From a virus, in the IMG/VR virus record IMGVR_UViG_3300042881_000493, positions 1 to 63,860 of that record: 63,860 nt of DNA, one strand, 5' to 3'. Under the pieces are notes generated by a model. The model saw only the letters and a program-made list of their open reading frames with translations. It did no database searches and was not told the origin of the DNA. The position numbers and the translations under genes were made by a program. This document shows, in pieces, positions 9,227 to 43,942 of the stretch. The stretch's first letter is position 1. Every line of letters begins with the position of its first letter.

Positions 9227-10357
9227 ATGTCTATAAGACAAATGTTTCCGGGGAGTATTGTTAAGCCGGGGTTTAATCCTCTAGCGGTTCAGACACCTAT
9301 CTATACTTACAATTTGTACGGTTGGGGCGATAACTCTTATGGTCAATTAGGATTGGGCAATATAACTAATCGCTCTTCTCCTAATCAAGTCGGTGCTTTG
9401 ACTGATTGGTTAAGCATTGTTACTAGATACAGCACATTGGCTTTAAAAACTAACGGGACAATTTGGGCTTGGGGTAGGAATCAAGCAGGCCAATTGGGAC
9501 TTGGTAACACTACCTACTATTCATCTCCAAAACAAGTCGGTTCTTTAACAACTTGGTCTGTTGTGGCAACTATTAACAATGCGTCTATGGCATTAAAGTC
9601 TGATGGAACACTATGGACATGGGGTGGTAATAGTTTTGGCGCATTAGGTCTTGGCGATACTATATCTAGGTCTAGCCCAGTACAAGTTGGAGCTTTGACC
9701 AATTGGGCAAAGATTTCTACAGGTGCAAATTTTGGTGGTTTTGCAATTACAACTAGTGGCGCTTTGTATGGCTGGGGTTACAACACTTCAGGTGCATTAG
9801 GGTTGGGTAATGTCACCAACTATTCGTCACCTAAGCAGGTCGGTTCATTAACTAATTGGTCATCTGTTGTATCTGGAATACAAAACACTTACGCAATTAA
9901 AACAGATGGCACATTTTGGGCTTGGGGTAACGGTAACTATGGGGCATTAGGTCTTGGTAACTCAACATATTATTCCAGCCCAAAACAAGTCGGAGCTTTG
10001 ACCAATTGGTTGCAAGTTTCGGCATCGGAATATTCTGCATTAGCTGTTAAAACTGACGGTACATTATGGTCTTGGGGAGATGGTGGTTCAGGCGTTTTGG
10101 GTTTAGGTAATACAAGCAATTACAACTCTCCCAAGCAGGTTGGTGCTTTAACTGCATGGACTGCTGTAAGGCTTGGTAAAAACTTTGCTATTGCTTCTAA
10201 AACAGACGGAACTATTTGGACTTGGGGAAATAATACTTTAGGTGAATTAGGTTTAGGCAATACAACCAACAGAAGTTCCCCAGTACAAGTAGGAGCACTT
10301 GCCACTTGGGGCTATATTACTGCTGGCGCTCAATCAACTTTTGCCCTAGCTTTCTAA
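9227..10357 (+). CDS. RCC1 seven-bladed propeller protein, type A copy 1
   Basis: 376 residues. A short N-terminal linker (SIVKPGFNPLAVQT) is followed by exactly seven RCC1 repeats of about 50 residues, each with WGxNxxGxLGLGNxTxxSSPxQVGxLTxW. Seven repeats is the number that closes an RCC1 beta-propeller. The linker is shared with the protein at 13892. Being in the tail fibre operon, it is probably a tail-tip or receptor-binding component (inference). GGGGA precedes the ATG weakly. Confidence 0.75.
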   Translation: MSIRQMFPGSIVKPGFNPLAVQTPIYTYNLYGWGDNSYGQLGLGNITNRSSPNQVGALTDWLSIVTRYSTLALKTNGTIWAWGRNQAGQLGLGNTTYYSSPKQVGSLTTWSVVATINNASMALKSDGTLWTWGGNSFGALGLGDTISRSSPVQVGALTNWAKISTGANFGGFAITTSGALYGWGYNTSGALGLGNVTNYSSPKQVGSLTNWSSVVSGIQNTYAIKTDGTFWAWGNGNYGALGLGNSTYYSSPKQVGALTNWLQVSASEYSALAVKTDGTLWSWGDGGSGVLGLGNTSNYNSPKQVGALTAWTAVRLGKNFAIASKTDGTIWTWGNNTLGELGLGNTTNRSSPVQVGALATWGYITAGAQSTFALAF

Positions 10358-10366
10358 GAGACAACT

Positions 10367-11521
10367 ATGCCAGTAACAATCCCCGGCGTTCAATACTCAG
10401 GCATCTGGACAATGCAACAGGTGAATGCCGCTATTGCGGCTGGGACTTGGCCTGTCGGTAGCCCCCAATTTCTTTGGGGCTGGGGAACAAATAATTATGG
10501 TCAACTTGGACTTGGCAATACAACTTATTCGTTTTCATCACCGCAACAAGTTGGTTCATTGGCTACATGGAAAAGTGTAACTAGTAAATACTTTAATACA
10601 ACAGCTTTAAAATCAGACGGCACTCTTTGGGCTTGGGGCTATAATCAATACGGGGTTTTAGGGCTTGGTAACACAACAGATTATTCATCACCTAAACAGG
10701 TTGGTGCTTTGACTGCTTGGTCTAAAATTCGTAATGGGGCATATCACACTCTAGCCATAAAAACAGACGGCTCTCTTTGGGCATGGGGATACAATGCTTT
10801 TGGGCAACTTGGTTTGGGTAATACAACCAATCGATCTTCTCCCGTCCAAGTAGGTTTATTAACTGATTGGCTTGAAATAGGCGCTGGCAATTACAACACC
10901 CTTGCTGTTAAAACAAATGGCACTCTTTGGGCTTGGGGTTACAACGCTAACGGAAATCTTGGTTTAGGTAACCTCACATATTATTCATCCCCAAAACAAG
11001 TTGGCGCTTTAACAAACTGGGCTACTGTTGCAGGCGGATTTTATTTTTCTTTAGCCGTTAAAACAGATGGAACACTTTGGTCTTGGGGAGGTAACAACCA
11101 AGGTCAATTAGGTTTGGGCGATCAAACTTACAGATCATCTCCTGTTCAAGTTGGCGCTTTAACTACTTGGTACAATATTTCGGGTGGCAATACTTTTACT
11201 GTTGCGACTAAAACAAATGGCACATTGTGGTCATGGGGCCGAAACAATTTGGGGCAATTAGGTTTAGGTACTACTAGCTATTATTCTGCTTCTCCTAACC
11301 AAATAGGTTCTTTAACAACTTGGTTAAACATAGCTAATGGTTACAGTTTTGCTATTGCTACACAAACAAGCGGCGCTCTTTATGCTTGGGGGCGTAACAA
11401 TTCTGGACAATTAGGTCAAGGTGACACGGTAAATCGTTCTTCTCCAACTCAAGTTGGTGCATTAACTACTTGGACAACAATTGGTGCTGGGATACATTTT
11501 CCATTGGCAATCAAAGGATAA
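10367..11521 (+). CDS. RCC1 seven-bladed propeller protein, type B copy 1
   Basis: 384 residues. The N-terminal domain VTIPGVQYSGIWTMQQVNAA...GTWP, a motif seen in phage tail fibres, precedes seven RCC1 repeats (WGWGTNNYGQLGLGN first, YAWGRNNSGQLGQGD last). The same N-terminus is on the protein at 15015, so A and B types alternate. Likely a tail-tip propeller that attaches through the GVQYSGIW module. Confidence 0.75.
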   Translation: MPVTIPGVQYSGIWTMQQVNAAIAAGTWPVGSPQFLWGWGTNNYGQLGLGNTTYSFSSPQQVGSLATWKSVTSKYFNTTALKSDGTLWAWGYNQYGVLGLGNTTDYSSPKQVGALTAWSKIRNGAYHTLAIKTDGSLWAWGYNAFGQLGLGNTTNRSSPVQVGLLTDWLEIGAGNYNTLAVKTNGTLWAWGYNANGNLGLGNLTYYSSPKQVGALTNWATVAGGFYFSLAVKTDGTLWSWGGNNQGQLGLGDQTYRSSPVQVGALTTWYNISGGNTFTVATKTNGTLWSWGRNNLGQLGLGTTSYYSASPNQIGSLTTWLNIANGYSFAIATQTSGALYAWGRNNSGQLGQGDTVNRSSPTQVGALTTWTTIGAGIHFPLAIKG

Positions 11522-11528
11522 TAACTGC

Positions 11529-13307
11529 ATGAACAAAACACTGCACTTCCTCTCTGGCATTCCTCGTTCTGGCTCGACAGTCCTTGCGGCTATCCTGAAC
11601 CAGAACCCAATGACTCATGTATCCACCACATCTGGGCTTGTCCACGCCCTTGATGGGCTTGCCAACACATGGCATTCGGCTGGCTTGCTGAACGAAAACG
11701 ACCCGGAGAGAACAAAGTTAGCGCAGACCATGCGCGGGGCAATTGATGCGTTCTACGAAGACACTGACAAGCCTGTCATCATCGACAAGTCCCGTGGCTG
11801 GCCTATTGGTCAAATTATGGGTGCTATGTCGCAGGTGCTAGGTCGTCAGCCTAAGATCATTGCTACTGTTCGCTCAGTGCCTGACTGCGCCGCCAGCTTC
11901 ATTCGTGTAGCAAAACCCACAGACCTAGACGAATTCATGGCAACTGGTCAACTGATGGATCACCTCAAAGCCGCTTACATCTCCCTCCAGAATGGCTACG
12001 AGTACGCACCAGAGAACTTCCTATTTGTTGAGTATGAAGACCTGTTAGCTGACCCCAAAGCGCAGTTAGCCCGTATCCATGAGTTCTTGGGTCTGCCTGA
12101 GTTTGCCTACGACTTCAACAACATTGATGGCTCAAGCGTAGCTGAAGATGATGAAAACTTGCACGGTCACGCAGGGATGCACGATGTCAAGCCTGTATTG
12201 GCGGCGCAGCATAAGCAAGACCCCCGCGACCTGCTGAAGCACCACTACTCAGCTTTCTGTCAGCCTGAGTTCTGGCTTGAGCGTCCACGCACAGTTCCTG
12301 AGTTGCATGACCTAGACCTACAGCTTGCCGCATCCACAATGGGTGACTTTGCTGAAGGCTGGAGACTGGCCCAAAAGTTAGAAGCTGAAGAGCCTAGCAA
12401 CCACCGAGCCGCCTATAACCGTGGCTGGTACTTACTGCGTCAAGGTCAAATCCAAAAGGGCTACGGCTTGATGGACAGAGGCCGTATCGTAGGTGTCTTT
12501 GGTAACTCACGACCTGATGTGCCTACACCCCAGTGGGATGGCAAGACAAAGGGTACGGTCATGCTGTATCTGGAAGGCGGTCTGGGCGATCAGATTCACC
12601 AGATTCGTTATGCCAAGCTAATCGCAGAGCGTGGCTGTAAGGTGGTGGTGTCTTGTACTGGCCCACTAGCATCATTGTTCCAAGGCGTAGAAGGCGTATC
12701 AGCCGTTGTTCAGCACGAGGCTACCTTTGGTATCTACCACGACTTCTTTGTGTCTGGAATGTCTGCTGTAGTGCCTCTAGGCTTAGAACTCCGTGACCTG
12801 TCTGGTGCGCCATACCTTGAGAAGCCAATGTCAATCAAAGGTCGCAAAAAACGCATCGGTCTGCGCTGGCAGGGCAACAGTAAGTTTGAGCACGAACACA
12901 ATAAGAAATTCCCTTATGAACTCATGTTTGAGGCGGTAAAGGATATTGATGCTGAGTTTGTTTCCCTTCAAAGAGATGAAGGAATGGAAGCGTGTCCAGC
13001 TTGGGTTAAGCAAGTCCCCTTGAATACTTGGCAAGATACCCAGCAAGCTGTAGCAAGTTGCGATCTGGTCATCTCAGCTTGTACCAGCGTGTCACACCTA
13101 TCGTCTGCCATGGGCGTAGAAACTTGGGTAATAACGCCTGTAATGCCATACTTTTTGTATTCCATGGACGGCGACAAAACACCATATTACGATAGCATGA
13201 GACTGTTTAGGCAAGAAGTTTACGGCGATTGGACGCATCCGTTCTTGTCAGTTAAAGCAACTTTGATTAAAATGTTTGGGCAACCTAAACTAAGGAATGT
13301 GGCGTGA
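11529..13307 (+). CDS. Sulfotransferase fused to GT-B glycosyltransferase
   Basis: 592 residues. Residues 1-260 are a PAPS-dependent sulfotransferase: SGIPRSGSTVL (about residues 9-19) is the 5'-phosphosulfate loop and VRSVPDCAASFIR the 3'-phosphate motif. A TPR-like linker follows (about 275-330). Residues of about 345-590 match GT9/GT41-like GT-B transferases: LEGGLGDQIHQIRYAKLI, RIGLRWQGN, LVISACTSVSHLSSAMG and SMRLFRQ. The protein could sulfate and glycosylate one target. ATG 11529 is chosen rather than upstream codons inside the RCC1 gene. It ends in a GTGA overlap with the GIY-YIG gene. Confidence 0.75.
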   Translation: MNKTLHFLSGIPRSGSTVLAAILNQNPMTHVSTTSGLVHALDGLANTWHSAGLLNENDPERTKLAQTMRGAIDAFYEDTDKPVIIDKSRGWPIGQIMGAMSQVLGRQPKIIATVRSVPDCAASFIRVAKPTDLDEFMATGQLMDHLKAAYISLQNGYEYAPENFLFVEYEDLLADPKAQLARIHEFLGLPEFAYDFNNIDGSSVAEDDENLHGHAGMHDVKPVLAAQHKQDPRDLLKHHYSAFCQPEFWLERPRTVPELHDLDLQLAASTMGDFAEGWRLAQKLEAEEPSNHRAAYNRGWYLLRQGQIQKGYGLMDRGRIVGVFGNSRPDVPTPQWDGKTKGTVMLYLEGGLGDQIHQIRYAKLIAERGCKVVVSCTGPLASLFQGVEGVSAVVQHEATFGIYHDFFVSGMSAVVPLGLELRDLSGAPYLEKPMSIKGRKKRIGLRWQGNSKFEHEHNKKFPYELMFEAVKDIDAEFVSLQRDEGMEACPAWVKQVPLNTWQDTQQAVASCDLVISACTSVSHLSSAMGVETWVITPVMPYFLYSMDGDKTPYYDSMRLFRQEVYGDWTHPFLSVKATLIKMFGQPKLRNVA

Positions 13308-13858
13308 CTGAAGAATCTTGCACCGTGTATGAGATTGCCAACCAGTTGGATGGCATGAAATACTTTGGTGTAACAAAAAATCCACACAAACGGTTTATTT
13401 ACCATTGTGCAAAATCAAAAACTAAATCGTACATTTCTCATGCAATAGCAAGACATGGGAAAGAAAACTTCCAAATAAAAGTGCTTCTGGTAAGCAACCG
13501 CAGGTACTGCTTGGAAATGGAAGCAAAACTTATCAAAGCGTACAACACAGTTGCACCAAATGGGTATAACATTTGTGGTGGTGGTGAAGGCCCAGTTGCT
13601 TCATTATTTGGCGATAAGAATCCAATGTTTGGCAGAAAACAAAAGCCAGAATCAGTTGCCAAAAGCAGGGCTGGTGTTTTGGGTTCAAACAATTATTTAG
13701 CTAAAGAGTTTGTGGCTACCGACCCTACTGGTAAACAATACACTGGCAAGGGCTTGGCGCTTTTTTGTTTGGAATATGGTTTGCATACTTCCAATATGGC
13801 GCAAGTGGCTAGGGGTTTGCGGAATCATAGCAAAGGCTGGAAGGTTCAATATGTTTAA
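13304..13858 (+). CDS. GIY-YIG homing endonuclease
   Basis: 184 residues. The N-terminal YEIANQLDGMKYFGVTKNPHKRF is the GIY-YIG nuclease core (with variant residues YEI and YFG), followed by AIARHGKENFQIKVL and EMEAKLIKAYNT. The middle has GDKNPMFGRKQKPESVAKSRAG, a NUMOD-type DNA-binding segment, then an HTH-like C-terminus (GLALFCLEYGL). GTG start overlaps the sulfotransferase stop. It appears inserted at the sulfotransferase 3' end; a second copy of those last codons follows at about 13850-13895. Confidence 0.75.
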   Translation: MTEESCTVYEIANQLDGMKYFGVTKNPHKRFIYHCAKSKTKSYISHAIARHGKENFQIKVLLVSNRRYCLEMEAKLIKAYNTVAPNGYNICGGGEGPVASLFGDKNPMFGRKQKPESVAKSRAGVLGSNNYLAKEFVATDPTGKQYTGKGLALFCLEYGLHTSNMAQVARGLRNHSKGWKVQYV

Positions 13859-13895
13859 TCTGTCTAACAAGCCAGCATTGAGGAGTGTAGCGTGA
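13850..13895 (+). pseudogene. Remnant 3' end of sulfotransferase gene
   Basis: In one frame this encodes MFNLSNKPALRSVA and a stop, closely resembling the actual end of the sulfotransferase, MFGQPKLRNVA. Both end in GCGTGA with the GTG starting the next gene. This is the expected scar if the GIY-YIG gene entered near the 3' end of the gene and brought replacement last codons. Confidence 0.55.
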
Positions 13896-15010
13896 GCTTT
13901 AGATACGCCGCTGGGATAAACAAGCCGGGGTTCAACCCGCTGGCGGCTCAGACAAGCACTCTTCAAACTACGCTGTTTAGCTGGGGGTATAACACCCAAG
14001 GTCAGTTAGGTTTAGGAAATGTTACCTATTATTCCTCTCCAAAACAAATAGGCTCTTTAACTAATTGGGCTACTGTATCTAACGGAACAAACTTTAGTAC
14101 AGCAATTAAAAGAGATGGCACATTTTGGGCTTGGGGTTTAAACAGCAATGGGCAACTTGGCGTAGGAAATACAACCAGTTACTCTAGTCCAAAACAAATT
14201 GGCGCTTTAACTACTTGGTCTAAAACTGCTGGTGGTTTTACTCATGTCCTTGCAATTAAAACAGACGGAACTCTGTGGGCATGGGGTGATAATGCTCAAG
14301 GTCAATTAGGCGACGGCACTACAACTCAACGAAACTCTCCCGTTCAAATTGGCGCGTTGACTATATGGTCAAACATTGCAGGGGGTAGTGATTTTTCAAT
14401 AGCTACTCAAACCAACGGTACGCTTTGGAGTTGGGGTCGTAGCACCTATGGCCAACTTGGACTTGGGAACACTACTAGTTACTCCTCTCCTAAACAAATT
14501 GGTGCATTAACGGCATGGTCTAAAGTAACCACTGGAAACATTTATGCCCTTGCCGTTAAAACTGATGGTACTTTATGGTCTTGGGGTTATAACAACTATG
14601 GTCAACTTGGTGTTGGCAACACCACCAACTATTCTTCCCCCAAACAAATTGGTGCGTTAACCACTTGGTCTACCATTGATGCTGGCTGGGCTTTTGCTCT
14701 TGCCGTTACAACAGGCGGCGCTCTTTATGCTTGGGGTGAGAACGGAACGGGTCAACTAGGTCAAGGTAACTTTACTGATAGATCATCTCCAAATCAAATA
14801 GGTGCACTTACTACATGGGCAGTCCCCGCTGGTGGCAGGGCACACAGTCTTGCCACTACAACAGGGGGAGAGCTTTGGTCATGGGGTCAAAATACTTACG
14901 GTGAGCTTGGTCTAGGTAGTACAGCAATAAAACTTTCTCCTAATCAAGTAGGGTCAAATACTACTTGGCTTATTGTGGCGTGTGGTCAATATCACACAAC
15001 AGCGGGATAG
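13892..15010 (+). CDS. RCC1 seven-bladed propeller protein, type A copy 2
   Basis: 372 residues from a GTG start that overlaps the sulfotransferase remnant stop. N-terminal INKPGFNPLAAQT matches the type A linker of 9227. Seven RCC1 repeats, here mostly with PKQIG rather than PKQVG, ending with WSWGQNTYGELGLGS. A paralogue of the copy before the sulfotransferase, arguing for duplication of the A-B pair. Confidence 0.75.
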   Translation: MSFRYAAGINKPGFNPLAAQTSTLQTTLFSWGYNTQGQLGLGNVTYYSSPKQIGSLTNWATVSNGTNFSTAIKRDGTFWAWGLNSNGQLGVGNTTSYSSPKQIGALTTWSKTAGGFTHVLAIKTDGTLWAWGDNAQGQLGDGTTTQRNSPVQIGALTIWSNIAGGSDFSIATQTNGTLWSWGRSTYGQLGLGNTTSYSSPKQIGALTAWSKVTTGNIYALAVKTDGTLWSWGYNNYGQLGVGNTTNYSSPKQIGALTTWSTIDAGWAFALAVTTGGALYAWGENGTGQLGQGNFTDRSSPNQIGALTTWAVPAGGRAHSLATTTGGELWSWGQNTYGELGLGSTAIKLSPNQVGSNTTWLIVACGQYHTTAG

Positions 15011-15014
15011 AACT

Positions 15015-16172
15015 ATGGCAACTACAACAGTCGTATCAGGCGTTCAATACTCAGGTATCTGGAACATCAGCAGTCAAGCCAATGCTAAGGCGGCAAATAC
15101 TTGGCCTGTCCCTCCTTCTCCAGCTTTGTTTACATGGGGGGCTGGTGCATTTGGTGTTTTAGGTTTAGGAAACACAACTAATTATTCATCCCCTAAACAA
15201 GTTGGCTTATTAAAAGCGTGGTTAAATTTAGCAAGTGGTGCATCCCATGTAATATCAAGCAAAGAGGATGGGACTCTTTGGGCGTGGGGCAGAAATAATT
15301 CAGGCCAACTTGGTGTAGGAGACACTGCTAATAAATCATCACCAACTCAAATTGGCGCGTTAACAACTTGGTTAAAAGTTGCGGCGGGTGGATATTCATC
15401 ATATGCAATAAAAACTGATGGAACTTTATGGTCTTGGGGTAGTAATAGCGCAGGCCAATTAGGTCTTGGCAATATAACCTACTACTCAAGTCCCAAACAG
15501 ATTGGTGCTTTAACTACTTGGTTATCAATTGCTAGTGGTTTTTACACTGCAATTGCAATTAAAACTGACGGAACATTGTGGTCTTGGGGAAATAATACTT
15601 ATGGACAACTTGGTATTGGCAATACATCTGTTAGGTCATCCCCAGTTCAAGTTGGCGTTTTAACTAATTGGCTTAATATTGCAAGTGGTAAATATTACAC
15701 TTTATCTGTAAAAACAGATGGAACACTGTGGTCTTGGGGTCAAAATAACTCAGGACAGTTAGGTCTTGGAAATACAACTGCATACTCGTCACCTAAACAA
15801 GTTGGCGCATTAACTGCTTGGAATATTGTAGCTAGTAAAGAAAATCATGGTTTATCCATTAAAACTGATGGTTCATTGTGGTCATGGGGTGTTAATGGTA
15901 ATGGACAACTTGGTCTTGGAGATAGCGCAAATCGGTCATCCCCAGTTCAAGTTGGCGCTTTAACTAATTGGTTAAAAATAACAGGTGGTCAATATCAATC
16001 TTTATCAATTAAAACGGATGGCACTCTGTGGTCATGGGGAGATGGTGGTGGTGGAAGACTTGGATTGGGAAATACTACCCAGTACAACTCACCAAAACAA
16101 GTTGGAGCATTAACTAATTGGGCCGTTGTTTCAACTGGTACAACTGCAACTGTTGCAACTGCATACCTTTAA
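15015..16172 (+). CDS. RCC1 seven-bladed propeller protein, type B copy 2
   Basis: 385 residues. ATG 15015 gives the type B N-terminus VVSGVQYSGIWNISSQANAK...NTWP. Seven RCC1 repeats follow (FTWGAGAFGVLGLGN to WSWGDGGGGRLGLGN). Codon use is more AT-rich than in its type A neighbour. Probably a tail-tip protein paralogous to 10367. Confidence 0.75.
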   Translation: MATTTVVSGVQYSGIWNISSQANAKAANTWPVPPSPALFTWGAGAFGVLGLGNTTNYSSPKQVGLLKAWLNLASGASHVISSKEDGTLWAWGRNNSGQLGVGDTANKSSPTQIGALTTWLKVAAGGYSSYAIKTDGTLWSWGSNSAGQLGLGNITYYSSPKQIGALTTWLSIASGFYTAIAIKTDGTLWSWGNNTYGQLGIGNTSVRSSPVQVGVLTNWLNIASGKYYTLSVKTDGTLWSWGQNNSGQLGLGNTTAYSSPKQVGALTAWNIVASKENHGLSIKTDGSLWSWGVNGNGQLGLGDSANRSSPVQVGALTNWLKITGGQYQSLSIKTDGTLWSWGDGGGGRLGLGNTTQYNSPKQVGALTNWAVVSTGTTATVATAYL

Positions 16173-16203: not shown

Positions 16204-16614
16204 ATGACACATTATGTACAAGTCCTCAATGGGGAAATCAAACAAGTCTGGGACACACCTCCCGCAGAAGGCGTAGGCAATAACGGCTGGCGCAACGCTG
16301 TGGAAGTTCGTCCTGCAATCACAGCACACCGTCAGGGCTACACTGCCCACCGCTTTGATCTGAGCACTGATCCAGTGCAGATCATTTGGGACACATACGA
16401 TATTTCTGTGGCTGACCGCAAAAACGGTATGAAATCCAACGCAGGTTTTGGATTCCAACAAGTGGTGATGGAGCAGTCCCGCCTACAGCTTTCTCCTAAC
16501 GCTAACGAGCAGTACGATGCCACAGCGGTAGAGACAGCGCGTCAGGCTATGTTGACCAAGCAAGCCGCTATCGAAGCCGCTACAACTCACGATCAATTAG
16601 ACGCTCTGCTATGA
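16204..16614 (+). CDS. Putative tail fibre assembly-like protein
   Basis: 136 residues, strong AAGGAG upstream. Starts MTHYVQVLNGEIKQVWDTPP, a typical opening for small proteins after phage fibre genes; the C-terminus is helical (AVETARQAMLTKQAAIEAATTHDQL). Position after the last RCC1 gene suggests a fibre chaperone or connector. It overlaps the APS kinase gene by four bases. Confidence 0.45.
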   Translation: MTHYVQVLNGEIKQVWDTPPAEGVGNNGWRNAVEVRPAITAHRQGYTAHRFDLSTDPVQIIWDTYDISVADRKNGMKSNAGFGFQQVVMEQSRLQLSPNANEQYDATAVETARQAMLTKQAAIEAATTHDQLDALL

Positions 16615-17399
16615 AGCGTATTTTGATTATGGGTTTGCCCGGCGCGGGTAAGACCACCTTAGCTCAACACATCCTTGATCACTTGCAAGCAGAACGCAAG
16701 ACGGTCATGTGGCTTAACGCCGATGATGTGCGTAAGAAGTACAACGACTGGGACTTTTCCCACGAAGGCCGTATTCGTCAGAGCCTACGGATGCGTGAGC
16801 TTGCTGACAGCTACGATGTAGACTATGTGATCTGCGACTTTGTTGCTCCTCTTGTTGAGATGCGTAACAACTTTAAAGCTGACTGGACTATCTGGGTTGA
16901 CACCATCAATCAAGGTCGTTTTGAAGACACCAACAAGGTGTTCGTTCCTCCTAAAGAATATGACTTCAGGATCACCGAGCAGAAGTCTGAGAAGTGGGGT
17001 GAGTTCATTGCCGCACACATCTTGGATGACCGCCGCCGCCCTGTGTTTGACTGGCAAAAAGAAACAGTCCAGATGCTTGGCAGATGGCAACCGTGGCATG
17101 AAGGCCACCGTAAACTGTTTGAACGGGCGTTAGCTAAGACTGGTCAAGTTGTGATCCAGATCAGGGACTGCCAAGGCTGGAACGGCTCTAACCCGTTTGC
17201 CGCCAATCAGGTCAAAGAGTTTATTAGCCGTGATCTAGACCCCCTGTACCAAGGTCAGTACGAAGTTCAATTGGTTCCTAACATTGTCAACATTACCTAC
17301 GGGCGCGATGTTGGATACAAGATTGAGCAGGAATCTTTTGACGATGCTACCCACGCTATCTCGGCAACCAAGATACGCAAAGAGATGGGAATTGAATAA
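16611..17399 (+). CDS. APS kinase fused to HxGH nucleotidyltransferase
   Basis: 262 residues. Residues 1-150 match adenylylsulfate kinase: Walker A GLPGAGKTT (8-16), LNADDVRKKYNDWDFS in place of the usual DGDxVR...N...FS, and DFVAP. The enzyme phosphorylates APS to PAPS, the donor for sulfotransferases such as that at 11529. Residues of about 155-262 form a nucleotidyltransferase: GRWQPWHEGH with HEGH at 163-166 and C-terminal ISATKIR. That domain could be ATP-sulfurylase-like, NMNAT-like or cytidylyltransferase-like; I cannot decide its substrate. Confidence 0.7.
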   Translation: MKRILIMGLPGAGKTTLAQHILDHLQAERKTVMWLNADDVRKKYNDWDFSHEGRIRQSLRMRELADSYDVDYVICDFVAPLVEMRNNFKADWTIWVDTINQGRFEDTNKVFVPPKEYDFRITEQKSEKWGEFIAAHILDDRRRPVFDWQKETVQMLGRWQPWHEGHRKLFERALAKTGQVVIQIRDCQGWNGSNPFAANQVKEFISRDLDPLYQGQYEVQLVPNIVNITYGRDVGYKIEQESFDDATHAISATKIRKEMGIE

Positions 17400-17616
17400 G
17401 TACCATGTGCGCTTTAACACCAAGCACAATGGCTCTGACTTGGTGTGGCGTATCTTTGAGAACGGTGATGAACATCTTGCCACTGATGTAAGAATCGTTG
17501 GCGAGACTTTCACGGAATGCACTCACGAGCACGGCGAAACCAAATGGAACATTGCCTGCAAGGGTAGGCTAGTCTGGGTGGACAAAGTAGCTGTGATCGT
17601 GACTGACAAAGACTAA
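17392..17616 (+). CDS. Small hypothetical protein
   Basis: 74 residues from TTG 17392, which overlaps the previous stop; GTG 17407 is an alternative. Sequence NKYHVRFNTKHNGSDLVWRIFENG...WNIACKGRLVWVD is seen in other phages beside sugar-nucleotide genes, function unknown. It overlaps the next ATG by one base. Confidence 0.5.
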   Translation: MNKYHVRFNTKHNGSDLVWRIFENGDEHLATDVRIVGETFTECTHEHGETKWNIACKGRLVWVDKVAVIVTDKD

Positions 17617-18056
17617 TGACTATTGTCTTCACCAATGGATGCTTTGATGTGCTCCACCGTGGGCACATCGAGTATCTAAAGCAGTCCCGTCAACTTGGGA
17701 CTAGACTGGTTGTGGGGCTGAACTCAGACGCTTCTGTTAAGAGGCTCAAGGGTGATAACAGACCTATCAACAATCAGGACGACCGCAGGGCACTGTTGCT
17801 GGCGCTCAGGTGTGTAGATCAGGTGGAAATCTTCGAGGAAGATACGCCACTAGAGTTGATCATGCGCATCAACCCTGACATCATTACCAAGGGGGGTGAC
17901 TACCAGCCTGCTCAAGTTGTGGGACACGCTGTTGTTCAGAAAACAGTTATCATTCCATTTTTAGACGGGTATTCATCAACAAGGATTATCCATGCGGTTA
18001 AAAGGAATAGTGGAGAAGGGTTGGGGTTCGGAGCTAATCTGGGCAACCAACGATAA
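17616..18056 (+). CDS. hldE: Heptose-1-phosphate adenylyltransferase (HldE C-domain)
   Basis: 146 residues. TNGCFDVLHRGHIEYL with HRGH at 14-17 and YSSTRII near the C-terminus are the nucleotidyltransferase signature of HldE domain II (RfaE). It would convert D-glycero-beta-D-manno-heptose 1-phosphate to ADP-heptose. Normally fused to the kinase in enterobacteria; here encoded separately from the kinase at 18342, with a cupin between them. Overlaps the cupin gene by 65 bases. Confidence 0.75.
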   Translation: MTIVFTNGCFDVLHRGHIEYLKQSRQLGTRLVVGLNSDASVKRLKGDNRPINNQDDRRALLLALRCVDQVEIFEEDTPLELIMRINPDIITKGGDYQPAQVVGHAVVQKTVIIPFLDGYSSTRIIHAVKRNSGEGLGFGANLGNQR

Positions 18057-18354
18057 ATACTGCGGAAAGCTGATGACCTTTCGCAAGGGTGCTAAGTTTT
18101 CCATGCACTTCCACGCTGAGAAAGACGAGACTTGGCTAGTCCAAGGTGGTCTGTTCAAGGTCATCTGGATTGACACCAAAGATGCCAGCCGCCATGAGAA
18201 GGTTCTCAACATTGGGGACACATGGCACAACCCACCATTATTGCCACACCAGCTAGTCTGCCTAACAGCAGGTGTGATCTTGGAAGTCTCAACTGCTGAC
18301 TCCGTGGAGGATAACTACCGAGTCGAAACAGGAGACAGCCAATGCGCATCCTAG
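17992..18354 (+). CDS. Cupin sugar isomerase-like protein
   Basis: 120 residues. Beta-barrel cupin motifs: HFHAEKDETWLVQGG (motif 1 with metal-binding HxH and E) and GDTWHNPPLLPHQ (motif 2 with H). It resembles the cupin fold of mannose-6-phosphate or D-lyxose isomerases. In this cluster it could supply a missing isomerase or epimerase step in heptose synthesis; that is inference. Start ATG lies within the adenylyltransferase gene. Confidence 0.6.
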   Translation: MRLKGIVEKGWGSELIWATNDKYCGKLMTFRKGAKFSMHFHAEKDETWLVQGGLFKVIWIDTKDASRHEKVLNIGDTWHNPPLLPHQLVCLTAGVILEVSTADSVEDNYRVETGDSQCAS

Positions 18355-19055
18355 TCATTGGTGACGGTTGTATCGACGAATACCGCTATGGCGAGATACG
18401 CAGGGTAAACCCTGAATCTACTGCGCCCCTCTTAAACTTTGAGAAAAGCGAAGAGAAGATGGGCATGGCGTTTAATGTTGCTCAGAACCTTCAGGCATTT
18501 GGCGCTGAAGTCACCTTGTGCGTTAGCGACGAAATATCCCGCAAGATCAGATACATTGACCGCAGGACTGGTGAGCACCTTCTGAGGGTTGATCAGGATG
18601 TGGAGGCTAAGCCCTACGACTTTGGCGTGCCCATGGAGGGGTTTGATGCCATTGTGATCTCTGACTACAACAAGGGGCATGTGCTTGACGAAGTTGTTTT
18701 GCAATTGCGCCAGCAGTTTGAGGGGCCAATCTACATGGACACCAAGAAGCGCAACTTGGCAGACTTTCCTGACATTTACATCAAGATCAACCAGCGCGAA
18801 CTGTACGACTCTACCTCACTGCCTGATTCAGAATATCTGATAGTCACCTATGGCGCTAAGGGCTGTGGATACAAGGACAAGCTATATCCTGCCAAACCTA
18901 TTGAGGTGTTGGATGTCTGCGGGGCAGGGGATGTATTCCTAGCAGCTATGGTCTATAAGCATTTAGAAACTGGCGACATGGGCCAAGCTTTGCCGTTTGC
19001 CAATGAGAAAGCGGCAATATCTTGCCAGAGCATAGGGGCTGTATGCATATCTTAA
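18342..19055 (+). CDS. hldE: Heptose-7-phosphate kinase (HldE N-domain, PfkB family)
   Basis: 237 residues, shorter than the roughly 320-residue bacterial domain. MRILVIGDGCIDEYRYGEIRRVNPE, MGMAFNVAQNLQAFGAEV and the PfkB signature DVCGAGDVFLAAMV (catalytic Asp of GAGD) identify it. It phosphorylates D-glycero-D-manno-heptose 7-phosphate at C1. The substrate-lid region between residues 60 and 80 seems shortened. AGGAG precedes the ATG; the last bases overlap the epimerase gene. Confidence 0.75.
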   Translation: MRILVIGDGCIDEYRYGEIRRVNPESTAPLLNFEKSEEKMGMAFNVAQNLQAFGAEVTLCVSDEISRKIRYIDRRTGEHLLRVDQDVEAKPYDFGVPMEGFDAIVISDYNKGHVLDEVVLQLRQQFEGPIYMDTKKRNLADFPDIYIKINQRELYDSTSLPDSEYLIVTYGAKGCGYKDKLYPAKPIEVLDVCGAGDVFLAAMVYKHLETGDMGQALPFANEKAAISCQSIGAVCIS

Positions 19056-19798
19056 TTACTGGATACAAAGGGTTTATTGGCCAGAACATGGTCAAAGCCC
19101 TGTCAGATCACGACCTAGATCTGTGTGAATGGGGTGATGAGTATTCCCTCTATGGAATAGATAGAGTCATTCACCTTGGTGCTATCTCAGATACAAGGTG
19201 TCAGGATTGGGTAGCACTACGCAGACAGAACGTAGGGTTTACCATTACTCTTATGGAGAGGTGCCAGCGGGCGGGGATACCTATTCAAATAGCTTCTTCG
19301 GCTTCGGTCTATGGGCCAAACAATACGACGTTTAAAGAGACTGACCCAGTAGCTCCTGCTAATCTATACGCTGAATCCAAAGCTTTAATCGAGCAGTACT
19401 TCCATGAGATGCGTCCTGTCTCGCCCGTGCAGATCTTTAGATACTTTAATGTCTATGGCCCACACGAAGATCACAAGGGGGATCAGGCTTCTCCGTTTCA
19501 CAAGTTCCGCGAGCAGGCAAAGACAGGAACGATTAAAATATTTGAAGGTTCAGAAAACTTTAAACGTGACTTTATCCATGTAGATGAAGTTATCAAAGTT
19601 CACAGAAAACTTTTAATTTTTCTAGGTTCTGGAATTTGGAACGTAGGAACTGGAAAAACAATGTCATTTTTAGACGTTGCTCGCTTGGCAGCAGATGAAT
19701 TTTCAGCGAAAATAGAGACTATTCCAATGCCTATTTTGGGTGGGTATCAAATGTATACATGTGCTGACATGACCAAACTGAACGGGATATTGAAATGA
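19043..19798 (+). CDS. hldD: ADP-heptose 6-epimerase-like (HldD) SDR enzyme
   Basis: 251 residues. Rossmann motif GYKGFIG (7-13), IHLGAISDT, SSASVYGP, catalytic YAESK and FRYFNVYGPHEDHKG...FRDFIHVDE-type blocks match ADP-L-glycero-D-manno-heptose 6-epimerase. It completes ADP-heptose synthesis. About 55 residues shorter than bacterial HldD. ATG 19043 is used; an upstream in-frame ATG would extend into the kinase gene. A copy of the 20-base palindromic element lies inside it at 19604. Confidence 0.75.
   Translation: MHILITGYKGFIGQNMVKALSDHDLDLCEWGDEYSLYGIDRVIHLGAISDTRCQDWVALRRQNVGFTITLMERCQRAGIPIQIASSASVYGPNNTTFKETDPVAPANLYAESKALIEQYFHEMRPVSPVQIFRYFNVYGPHEDHKGDQASPFHKFREQAKTGTIKIFEGSENFKRDFIHVDEVIKVHRKLLIFLGSGIWNVGTGKTMSFLDVARLAADEFSAKIETIPMPILGGYQMYTCADMTKLNGILK
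19604..19623 (+). repeat. 20-base palindromic element, copy inside hldD
   Basis: One base different from the copy at 42631 and the exact reverse complement of the copy at 37086. Here it is translated (part of RKLLIFL). It is the only copy within a known reading frame. Confidence 0.7.
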
Positions 19799-42074: not shown

Positions 42075-42362
42075 ATGAGATACGCCAACAGAATCGACGC
42101 TAACCAGAACAAAATTGTGGACGCATTACGGGGCGCAGGAGCGGTCGTAAGGATCATCTCGCAGGGTGATGGCATCCCTGATCTTTTGGTGGCTTATAAC
42201 GGCTATACGGTGCTTATGGAGGTCAAAGACGGGGACAAAGTTCCTTCAGCAAGGAAGCTCACCGAGGCCGAGCAGAAATTCTTCGACGAGTGGACAGGTG
42301 GAATGCTAGTAGTAGTTAATTCTGTAGGGGAAGCACTTGAAATTCTTAAACGCTGCGAGTAA
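42075..42362 (+). CDS. VRR-NUC-type nuclease/resolvase
   Basis: 95 residues from ATG 42075 (GTAGGAG upstream). GDGIPDLLVAYNGYTVLMEVKDG contains the PD...ExK catalytic arrangement of VRR-NUC nucleases, and EAEQKFFDEWTGGMLVVVNSVGEAL completes the small fold. Possibly a Holliday-junction resolvase or branch-specific nuclease. Followed by a strong terminator. Confidence 0.7.
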   Translation: MRYANRIDANQNKIVDALRGAGAVVRIISQGDGIPDLLVAYNGYTVLMEVKDGDKVPSARKLTEAEQKFFDEWTGGMLVVVNSVGEALEILKRCE

Positions 42363-42421
42363 TATGGTGGCAATCCAGAGGGCTGGTTGTTTTGTGAGTT
42401 GCTTTTTTCCTTTGATTGTTT

Positions 42422-42453
42422 TAGTGGCCTCGTAACTGGGGCCACTTTTTTTT
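42422..42453 (+). terminator. Strong intrinsic terminator
   Basis: AGTGGCC (42423-42429) pairs with GGCCACT (42440-42446) across a ten-base loop and runs into eight T (42446-42453). It ends the nuclease transcript and isolates it from the repeat region that follows. Confidence 0.85.
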
Positions 42454-42621
42454 GGGGCAAATGGGGCAAAAGCGACACCGTGTCGTATTTGAGTTTGTTT
42501 CACATATATATATGTGTAACAACTTTCTTGCCCCAAATGCCTTGGAACCCGCATGGATACTGGAGTTTTTAGGGCAAATGGGGCAACAAAAAAAGTGTAC
42601 TTTGCCCTGTGGTTTTGCCCC
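42454..42621. repeat. Iteron-like repeat region, candidate origin
   Basis: GGGGCAA occurs at 42454, 42463 and 42580, its complement TTGCCCC at 42528 and 42615, and one-mismatch copies at 42571 and 42602. A 15-base unit at 42455-42469 recurs at 42572-42586. Two perfect palindromes are inside: CGACACCGTGTCG (42473-42485) and CACATATATATATGTG (42501-42516). Such clusters mark replication origins or operators. It is next to the structured RNA. Confidence 0.55.
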
Positions 42622-42630
42622 AACAGTTGC

Positions 42631-42650
42631 AGAAAAATTTTAATTTTTCT
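42631..42650. promoter_or_regulatory. 20-base palindromic element
   Basis: Exact reverse complement of the copies at 54259 and 55085. It ends seven bases before a TTGACA, thus covering the UP-element position of the promoter at 42658, or it may stop incoming transcription. Confidence 0.65.
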
Positions 42651-42657
42651 ACGGGAG

Positions 42658-42688
42658 TTGACAAGGCCGGAACAGTTGTGCTTATAAT
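42658..42688 (+). promoter_or_regulatory. Promoter for structured RNA
   Basis: TTGACA at 42658-42663 and TATAAT at 42683-42688, both perfect consensus hexamers, with a long 19-base spacer. Transcription would begin near 42695 and run into the highly structured region and then the HNH gene. Confidence 0.6.
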
Positions 42689-42689
42689 C

Positions 42690-43291
42690 CGCCCGTTGCT
42701 GTCGGAGGCAATGAATTTGAGGCCGTTTACACATGCGTTCCGCTTTACTTAATGCTTTCTGTGGGGAGAGTCATTAAGCAAGGCTCCGACCGGACGCAGT
42801 TGTAAGCGGCCTTTTGTTTTTGAGACTGGGACTGGTGGCGGGTTAGCGCCGTTACAAGCCCTTTCTTGTTTTGAAAACACTGCTTTATGTGGCAGTTCCA
42901 GTCTCTCCTCCTACGACAACTTGCCTCAAGAAACTATCGGGTTTTGGGTTGGCACGAGGGAAGCGTAGGAAGCCGTAAGGTGTAGTCCGCAGTCCACCAA
43001 CCCTACAACGTTCCGTCTTGGGGCGAGAGCACTGGAAGATGCAAGGTGCAATCGGGGGAGTTCCGTTGTTGTCCGTGGTTCAGTCTGCGGGTGGCGGCAA
43101 CGGGCTGAATGGCCGAGCTAGACGTTGCCAAGCGACGGAAAGCATTCAGAGGTGACACAAGCTGGATTGATGTCACCCCACACGATACTAAGCTACGGCT
43201 CCGGGGATGTGGATAAACGCCTAGGTGGAGATACTCTCTCCCCTAGGCAGAGTCTTGCCCAGCCGAGCCTAGCACCCACCAAGGATGTGAA
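42690..43291 (+). ncRNA. Candidate large structured non-coding RNA
   Basis: About 600 bases without a credible gene but full of complementary arms: 42721-42742 with 42791-42811 (imperfect, followed by TTTTGTTTTT), GAGACTGGGACTG 42822-42834 with 42893-42905, GGGTTGG 42946 with CCAACCC 42997, TTCCGTC 43011 with GACGGAA 43134, GGCAACG 43096 with CGTTGCC 43123, GGTGACA 43151 with TGTCACC 43171, and GCCTAGG 43219 with CCTAGGC 43242 enclosing GGAGA/TCTCC. One pairing crosses another (pseudoknot). Size and complexity recall the GOLLD and ROOL classes of phage RNA, but I cannot assign a class by eye; it may be more than one RNA because of the terminator-like stretch at 42812. Confidence 0.6.
42721..42821 (+). 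terminator. Long hairpin with T-run inside RNA region
   Basis: The 22-base arm at 42721 pairs with 42791-42811 with few mismatches, encloses CTTAATG/CATTAAG (42748, 42772) and is followed by TTTTGTTTTT. It may end a 127-base small RNA starting at the promoter, or be a partial terminator or attenuator for the longer transcript. Confidence 0.55.
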
Positions 43292-43645
43292 ATGAACCTT
43301 TCCAATAAGTTGAAACGCAAGGCGGTGAAACTAGCTTGGGCGGTACGGGCTTCGTCCATGACGGATAACGAGGTAGCAGACGAACTGCGTAAGACGGCAG
43401 ACCCGTTCCTGTACACGGATGAGTGGAGGAAGCTTCGCCGAGAAGCTGCCGAGAGGTACGGGCTGATATGTTTTAAATGTGGGAGAGAGAACAGTCGCAA
43501 GTTCCCTATTAACATGGATCACATCAAACCACGTAAGTACTACCCTGAACTTGCTTTGGACATTGAGAACCTACAGCCGCTCTGCGGCCCTTGCAACAAG
43601 GCTAAAGGTAACAAAGTTACAGGCGTATTTAAAACGCAACATTAG
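43292..43645 (+). CDS. HNH endonuclease
   Basis: 117 residues. Two CxxC pairs (CFKC and CGPC) flank the HNH core MDHIKPRKYYPELALDIENLQPLCGPCN; an N-terminal helical region has SSMTDNEVADELRKTAD. Typical stand-alone phage HNH nuclease, which may act in packaging or as a homing enzyme. It follows directly on the structured RNA with AAGGA before its ATG. Confidence 0.8.
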   Translation: MNLSNKLKRKAVKLAWAVRASSMTDNEVADELRKTADPFLYTDEWRKLRREAAERYGLICFKCGRENSRKFPINMDHIKPRKYYPELALDIENLQPLCGPCNKAKGNKVTGVFKTQH

Positions 43646-43662
43646 GGAAAGTCCCTAGCACC
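43644..43662 (+). terminator. Weak terminator after HNH gene
   Basis: AGGGA/TCCCT with a three-base loop (43644-43656), then AGCACC and five T. The stem begins within the stop codon of the HNH gene. The stem is short, so function is uncertain. Confidence 0.35.
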
Positions 43663-43741
43663 TTTTTACAACAGACGGCACAAACTGCTAGAACTGTGCA
43701 ATAATAATTGGAAACATAGCAGGTATAACAGGAGATAAGCA

Positions 43742-43942
43742 ATGAGGTATAACGAAGAGAATCTAACGCATGGTGGAGCAAGAAGAGGGGCGGGTCGCCC
43801 TGCTACATCGGTGGATAAGCGCAGGGTTGAGGTGCTTATGAACGAGGGTCTCTCTATGAGAGTTATTGCTGAGAGATTCGGGGTAACTGCTGCGGTTATC
43901 AAGAGAGTAATCAGGGAGATCAAGAATGGACAGACCAAGTAA
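43742..43942 (+). CDS. Small HTH DNA-binding protein
   Basis: 66 residues. HGGARRGAGRPATSVDKRRVEVLMNEGLSMRVIAERFGVTAAVIKRVI combines a Gly/Arg-rich N-terminus common in phage DNA-binding proteins with a clear helix-turn-helix. AGGAG precedes the ATG. It heads the early plus-strand cluster and may regulate it. Confidence 0.6.
   Translation: MRYNEENLTHGGARRGAGRPATSVDKRRVEVLMNEGLSMRVIAERFGVTAAVIKRVIREIKNGQTK

What the first reader, a model, noticed from the sequence alone, without database searches (positions are those of the whole stretch)
42690..43291. Ornate large structured RNA candidate beside an HNH nuclease
About 600 gene-free bases after a promoter contain at least seven strong helices, including a 13-pair stem (42822-42834 with 42893-42905), long-range pairings, alternative arms for CTGAATG (43105) with either 43079 or 43143, and a crossing helix (43096 with 43123). 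Lengths and complexity are like GOLLD and ROOL RNAs, known from phages and aquatic metagenomes, but no class can be assigned by eye. It is directly followed by an HNH gene, so an RNA-linked mobile element is another possibility.
Basis: partly seen in the sequence, partly recalled or inferred. Interest (0 to 1): 0.85.

Follow-up and report, generated by a model that had tools for sequence, protein, structure and literature searches.

The report
Modular phage RNA with flank-matching guide
Between two phage genes lies a roughly 600-base structured RNA built from exchangeable parts, and one short internal stretch is kept identical, from phage to phage, to the DNA that directly follows the RNA, which suggests that the RNA finds that DNA by base pairing.

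Summary
The structured RNA is real. In freshwater phage contigs I found 154 homologues of its 5' domain and 40 of its 3' module. The 5' domain has a conserved promoter and ends in a terminator-like stem. Its 7-bp pseudoknot is exact in 151 of 154 loci, against 10 when halves are mismatched. In the 3' module 43 of 61 pairs show two-sided changes, none of 500 shuffles reaches that, and sliding the partners destroys it.

The RNA is mosaic. The same 5' domain is followed by at least seven dissimilar modules. One of these contains Rfam's Betaproteobacteria-1 RNA. The window's own RNA matches no Rfam family, so it is not GOLLD, ROOL, HEARO or a group I intron as modelled there.

The unexpected finding is a covarying identity. 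A segment X inside the module (window 43205-43211) is identical, not complementary, to segment Y just past the RNA's 3' CCACCA (43283-43289). Over 47 contexts the mean run is 7.1 nt, against 2.7 shuffled (maximum 3.6 of 1000). No conserved complementary strand was found. X could therefore pair with template-strand DNA at Y. My leading reading is a ColE1-RNAII-like R-loop, perhaps at a replication origin (unproven). The HNH gene is optional, and X=Y persists without it.

The parts
42658..42688 (+). Promoter: TTGACA (42658-42663), 19-nt spacer, TATAAT (42683-42688)
   Evidence: Both boxes aligned in the same place in 34 loci; missed by the tool's 16-18 nt spacer rule
42690..42821 (+). 5' domain ('domain a'): hairpin P1 (42695-42699/42708-42712), long stem P2 (about 42721-42737/42796-42811), U-run; looks like a small RNA ending in an intrinsic terminator
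   Evidence: 34-sequence alignment, 20 of 25 pairs with compensatory change; 154 sense instances
42701..42707 (+). Hypervariable pseudoknot strand in the P1 loop (GTCGGAG), pairs with CTCCGAC at 42784-42790
   Evidence: Exact 7-bp GTNNNNN/NNNNNAC pairing in 151 of 154 loci; mismatched halves give mean 10, maximum 17; 39 different 7-mers
42784..42790 (+). 3' strand of the pseudoknot
42822..42907 (+).
   Evidence: Present in 37 of 154 loci; also occurs elsewhere in related loci
42924..43281 (+). 3' ornate module, type A, ending in CCACCA (43276-43281)
   Evidence: 40 homologues, 61 pairs, 95.5% of cells paired, 43 pairs with two-sided change, 0/500 shuffles
43205..43211 (+). Segment X (GGATGTG), 2 nt after the invariant GGCTCC (43197-43202): putative guide
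   Evidence: Identical to Y and covaries with it in 47 unique contexts
43283..43289 (+). Segment Y (GGATGTG), 1 nt past the terminal CCACCA: the sequence matched by X; here also the ribosome-binding region of the HNH gene
43292..43645 (+). Optional HNH endonuclease gene, 117 aa
   Evidence: Pfam PF01844, E 5.6e-11; phrog_144, E 3.9e-19
43642..43668 (+). Terminator-like hairpin and T-run behind the HNH gene: likely end of the transcript
   Evidence: kept in relatives that carry other modules and no HNH

Best explanation
This is a previously undescribed modular phage non-coding RNA. Shown here: a conserved promoter and a 5' domain with a hypervariable but always complementary pseudoknot, followed by one of several interchangeable ornate modules. 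In the modules with known X and Y, a 5-11 nt segment X is kept identical to the DNA just past the RNA's 3' end, Y. Inferred: during transcription X pairs with the template DNA strand at Y and forms a local R-loop. Further inferred: by analogy with the ColE1 preprimer RNA II, this opens or primes a phage replication origin beside the early genes, and the 5' pseudoknot/terminator domain decides whether the full RNA is made. The HNH gene is most likely a free-standing homing endonuclease that settled next to the RNA and helps swap modules.
For: Structure. Mosaic modules behind one 5' domain. X=Y: 47 unique contexts, mean identical run 7.09 nt against 2.73 shuffled (maximum 3.60 in 1000) in fixed register. 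An unanchored column scan finds this pair of positions as the top identity-covarying pair in types A and E. Close pairs change both copies together, e.g. L071/L006, L063/L114, L005/L115, L044/L043. No complementary third strand is found at a consistent place, none in 7.3 kb of L138 for its 11-mer, none on the same strand in the 44.7-kb genome of L041 for its 11-mer, so template DNA is the obvious partner. X words are 72% purine against 55% for the module, which suits RNA:DNA hybrids. Promoter to Y is about 590 nt; ColE1 RNA II starts about 550 bp before its origin, needs no plasmid-encoded initiator and is controlled through its 5' end (PMC5043065). No DNA polymerase stands out among the window's ORFs of 180 aa or more (not exhaustive).
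Against: No transcript, R-loop or origin has been observed. X is only 5-11 nt, short for an R-loop by itself. Modules of types C, F and B show no X=Y by the same scans, so X=Y is not universal. GC skew shows no clean origin signal; it follows gene direction. The U-run after the 5' domain may terminate most transcripts. In HNH-bearing loci Y overlaps the ribosome-binding region, so a translational role is possible.
Confidence: 0.4

Rival explanations
1. RNA-guided homing: the RNA and the HNH protein form a complex in which X is the guide for Y-like DNA, so that the RNA-HNH unit is copied into phages that lack it.
For: Relatives picked by HNH sequence alone (L018-L025, L028, L029) lie directly behind such an RNA, and most show X=Y up to 11 nt; Y is right before the HNH start.
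Against: HNH is present in only 10 of 28 type A loci and in no type C locus, while X=Y is as good without HNH, e.g. L044, L043, L064. No domain a without a module was found. The HNH protein is only 117 aa with no second nuclease domain. The one search for an occupied-versus-empty site gave only the query itself.
Confidence: 0.2
2. GOLLD/ROOL-like RNA particle or trans-acting RNA: the RNA works in trans, and X and Y are two copies of one seed for the same outside target.
For: Size, ornate structure, phage origin, occasional tRNA neighbours (PMC12286853). Two copies of a seed would stay identical.
Against: No match to GOLLD or ROOL. 43 different X words would need as many different targets; the exact register right behind the RNA's end is not needed for a seed. 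For L041 no same-strand complement in the phage genome.
Confidence: 0.2
3. Regulatory leader: the 5' domain is an attenuator or antiterminator of the early operon, and the module is a structured 5' UTR; X=Y tunes ribosome access at Y.
For: The 5' domain ends in a terminator-like stem with a U-run; Y overlaps the ribosome-binding region of the next gene in HNH-bearing loci.
Against: Downstream genes are unrelated among loci, and many Y sequences are not ribosome-binding-like (TCCAGCATTGA, CTGATA).
Confidence: 0.12
4. X=Y is a target-site duplication left by insertion of a short 3' tail element.
For: Direct repeats of 5-11 nt flank a 50-85 nt segment ending in CACCA.
Against: Both copies change together between close relatives and stay identical in 47 contexts; a dead duplication would decay.
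Confidence: 0.04

Closest known systems
ColE1 RNA II (replication preprimer)
   Same: Non-coding transcript of about 550-600 nt from promoter to the supposed site of action, structured, with a regulatory 5' part; RNA would pair with its own template DNA downstream (PMC5043065).
   Different: No sequence or structure relation tested or seen; mosaic exchange of whole domains; explicit X=Y identity of 5-11 nt; found in phages; no RNA I antisense promoter established here.
Betaproteobacteria-1 RNA (Rfam RF02932)
   Same: The module behind domain a in L029 is a member (83 bits); a look-alike core is in MW202545.
   Different: The Rfam model covers only a 120-nt core and includes neither the 5' domain nor the X/Y tail; the window's module A does not match it.
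GOLLD and ROOL RNAs
   Same: Large ornate phage RNAs, sometimes beside tRNA genes; GOLLD also has a conserved and a variable half (PMC12286853).
   Different: No Rfam match; here the variable half is the 3' one and is exchanged for unrelated modules; X=Y identity.
HEARO / omega RNA of IscB
   Same: RNA immediately upstream of an HNH gene.
   Different: No Rfam match; the protein has HNH only (117 aa, no RuvC match); HNH optional; guide-like segment internal rather than at the element's edge.
IS110 bridge RNA
   Same: A structured RNA with an internal segment matching flanking DNA.
   Different: No transposase was noticed beside the RNA in the loci inspected; compared from memory only.

Membership tests
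GOLLD / ROOL (Rfam) | Match to the family's covariance model | tested here: not met
   cmscan of all 4227 families: none at gathering in the window; in 34 related loci only tRNA and RF02932; neither GOLLD nor ROOL up to E=10 in 42350-43750
GOLLD / ROOL (Rfam) | RNA-only multimeric cage | not testable with these tools
   needs cryo-EM
GOLLD / ROOL (Rfam) | Neighbouring tRNA genes | tested here: inconclusive
   No tRNA in the window; 9 of 154 homologous loci have 1-3 tRNAs within 1.5 kb upstream, 0 in the downstream control; MW202545 has several tRNA-like sequences directly upstream (by eye, sequence)
HEARO / IscB omega RNA | Match to the Rfam model, and a RuvC+HNH protein | tested here: not met
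Group I intron | Match to Rfam group I model | tested here: not met
Betaproteobacteria-1 RNA | Match to RF02932 | tested here: not met
   Not met by the window's module; met by another module behind the same 5' domain, L029
ColE1 RNA II type preprimer (works like) | Downstream DNA able to pair with an upstream RNA segment | tested here: met
   X=Y identity in fixed register
ColE1 RNA II type preprimer (works like) | R-loop, RNase H cleavage, DNA synthesis start | not testable with these tools
   needs infected cells or reconstitution

The most novel reading that the evidence does not exclude
An RNA-guided DNA-recognition system of phages unrelated to CRISPR, OMEGA or bridge RNAs: an ornate RNA carries an internal 5-11 nt guide that evolution keeps re-programmed to the DNA just past its own end, with exchangeable RNA modules and an HNH nuclease as occasional partner.
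Probability: 0.25. Interest if true: 0.95.

Novelty: categorically new. Interest (0 to 1): 0.85.

Why it matters
Large phage RNAs such as GOLLD and ROOL have no known function. Here is a group of large phage RNAs with a testable handle: a short sequence that must match the DNA behind the RNA. If the R-loop reading is right, some phages may start replication with a mosaic RNA preprimer. If RNA-guided targeting is right, it is a new programmable system. In either case it places at least one orphan Rfam family (Betaproteobacteria-1) inside a larger, testable unit.

Tried and rejected
Rfam families (GOLLD, ROOL, HEARO, group I and all others): no credible match for the window's RNA and only tRNA and RF02932 in related loci. 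Domain a in cellular genomes: 40 pattern hits in genome contigs, taken as chance, since the domain-a profile recognised none of them. Domain a in deposited phage genomes: one uncultivated complete genome, MW202545, otherwise none found with the sequences tried. A third RNA strand complementary to X and Y: none consistent. X=Y in types C, B, F: not found. Pairing of P1 with the junction before the module: only a weak excess (6.7 against 6.1), not claimed. Empty-site search for one locus: only the query itself. One search used a wrong family number (RF01998 is a group II intron model); its result is not used. One domain-a pattern was misdesigned and found nothing. RF02932 in Burkholderiales: 4 of 399 genomes over cut-off; of the hits read, L299 has X=Y (CCGCAAT) and L304 differs by one base, others do not clearly show it. 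MFE z-scores of single modules are mostly unremarkable; the structural claim rests on covariation. GC skew as an origin test: uninformative.

Full report
What was checked. The window is a 63,860-base virus record, G000. The 602 bases 42690-43291 lie between a small nuclease-like gene (42075-42362) and an HNH gene. They fold with z = -5.3 and match no Rfam family. Neighbouring genes were used to fetch related IMG/VR contigs, and blastn of the region against them found many relatives at 69-100% identity.

The 5' domain. The first 130 nt form a unit with its own promoter and a terminator-like stem with a U-run. In all, 154 sense-strand instances were collected. Hairpin P1 presents a loop GTNNNNN that pairs with NNNNNAC inside the second stem. 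The 7-bp match is exact in 151 of 154 loci, against 10 on average when halves of different loci are joined; 39 different 7-mers occur. The instances were collected partly by requiring such a pairing, so the mismatched-halves control, not the raw count, carries the argument. RNAalifold finds compensatory changes in 20 of 25 further pairs. Some type A loci instead carry other 5' domains that by eye have the same plan (L048, L064 and L098; sequences), so the 5' half may also be exchangeable.

The 3' modules. Behind the 5' domain, sometimes after hairpin b, come different modules: types C (63 loci), A (28), G (15), E (13), F (9), D (4), B (3), and about 18 small or single groups, some of them artefacts of antisense or cut-off hits. 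The window has type A. Close relatives with almost the same flanks carry B (L032, L034) or C (L035, L037, L039) in the same place. One module contains Betaproteobacteria-1 RNA (L029). Type D shares short blocks with A at both ends, by eye. For type A, 40 sequences give 61 pairs: 95.5% of cells paired, 43 pairs with two-sided change (shuffled mean 29.5), 334 two-sided cells (shuffled 104), none of 500 shuffles as high, and the signal collapses when partners slide by one column. The structure was derived from the same alignment, and the shuffles do not correct for relatedness; many independent pair types per position argue against either being the cause.

The identity X=Y. In type A a segment beginning 1-5 nt after the invariant GGCTCC is repeated as the first bases after the terminal CCACCA, about 70-85 nt downstream. 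The two copies are identical, not complementary, and differ from locus to locus: GGATGTG, GAAAGT, GGGGAGTAA, TCGTGGAAG, TCGGTGGAAA, CTGATA, CAGTGTG and others. Type E, L029, L205 and L138 (11 nt) show the same. Type D shows it in another context, as does MW202545, an independently assembled circular genome. A fixed-register test on 47 unique contexts gives a mean run of 7.09 nt against 2.73 with Y shuffled among loci, maximum 3.60 in 1000. A scan over all column pairs that knew nothing of this picks the same positions first in A and in E. HNH relatives chosen without regard to the RNA give further cases (L021 11 nt, L023 and L025 9 nt, L028 8 nt). Taken singly and without the anchors most such repeats are not significant; the fixed register carries the evidence. 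L026 shows only a near match, and L153 lacks the tail.

Interpretation. Identity that covaries suggests that both copies must match a third strand. No RNA strand fits. The template DNA strand at Y fits by definition, so the simplest inference is that X in the RNA pairs with DNA at Y. ColE1 RNA II forms a persistent hybrid with its template about 550 nt from its promoter and primes replication (PMC5043065); that the ColE1 hybrid depends on an upstream G-rich RNA segment and a C-rich template stretch I recall from Masukata and Tomizawa 1990 and could not read here. The origin role is the least supported step. The HNH gene is more likely a passenger that gains by sitting there, because X=Y does not depend on it.

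Limits. Nearly all sequences are metagenomic. No expression data were available. Type C, the commonest module, lacks a visible X=Y, so the shared function of all modules is inferred from their common place and 5' domain. The host is not established; the large terminase is closest to pelagiphage and freshwater phage relatives at 48-57% identity. Literature was searched only in the held open-access library and Rfam, so an unheld description cannot be excluded.

Noticed in passing
window 43630-43645; L034 6191, L035 1638, L037 5921: Relatives with other modules and no HNH keep a tiny reading frame MAK(T/I)QH*, matching the last four residues (KTQH) of the window's HNH protein, as if the HNH gene had been cut out or pasted in at that point.
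   Followed up: partly
window 42501-42517: AT-rich palindrome CACATATATATATGTG between the upstream terminator and the RNA promoter.
   Followed up: no
window 9227-16172: Four long ORFs with RCC1-like repeats (SWGxNxxGQLGLGN), by eye probably repetitive tail or fibre proteins.
   Followed up: no
window 16611-19798: Kinase- and nucleotide-sugar-epimerase-like genes in a phage, by eye possibly sugar-modification genes.
   Followed up: no
L298, L304, L305 (one Burkholderiales genome, G310): Three matches to Betaproteobacteria-1 RNA (two over the cut-off) with different flanks in one bacterial genome, suggesting a mobile or repeated element.
   Followed up: partly
L006 1604-1684, L071 4402-4480, L039 5505-5567, L053 3891-3998 and 4080-4148: Hairpin b also occurs separately upstream of or away from the RNA, twice in L053, so it appears to be an independent repeated element.
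   Followed up: no
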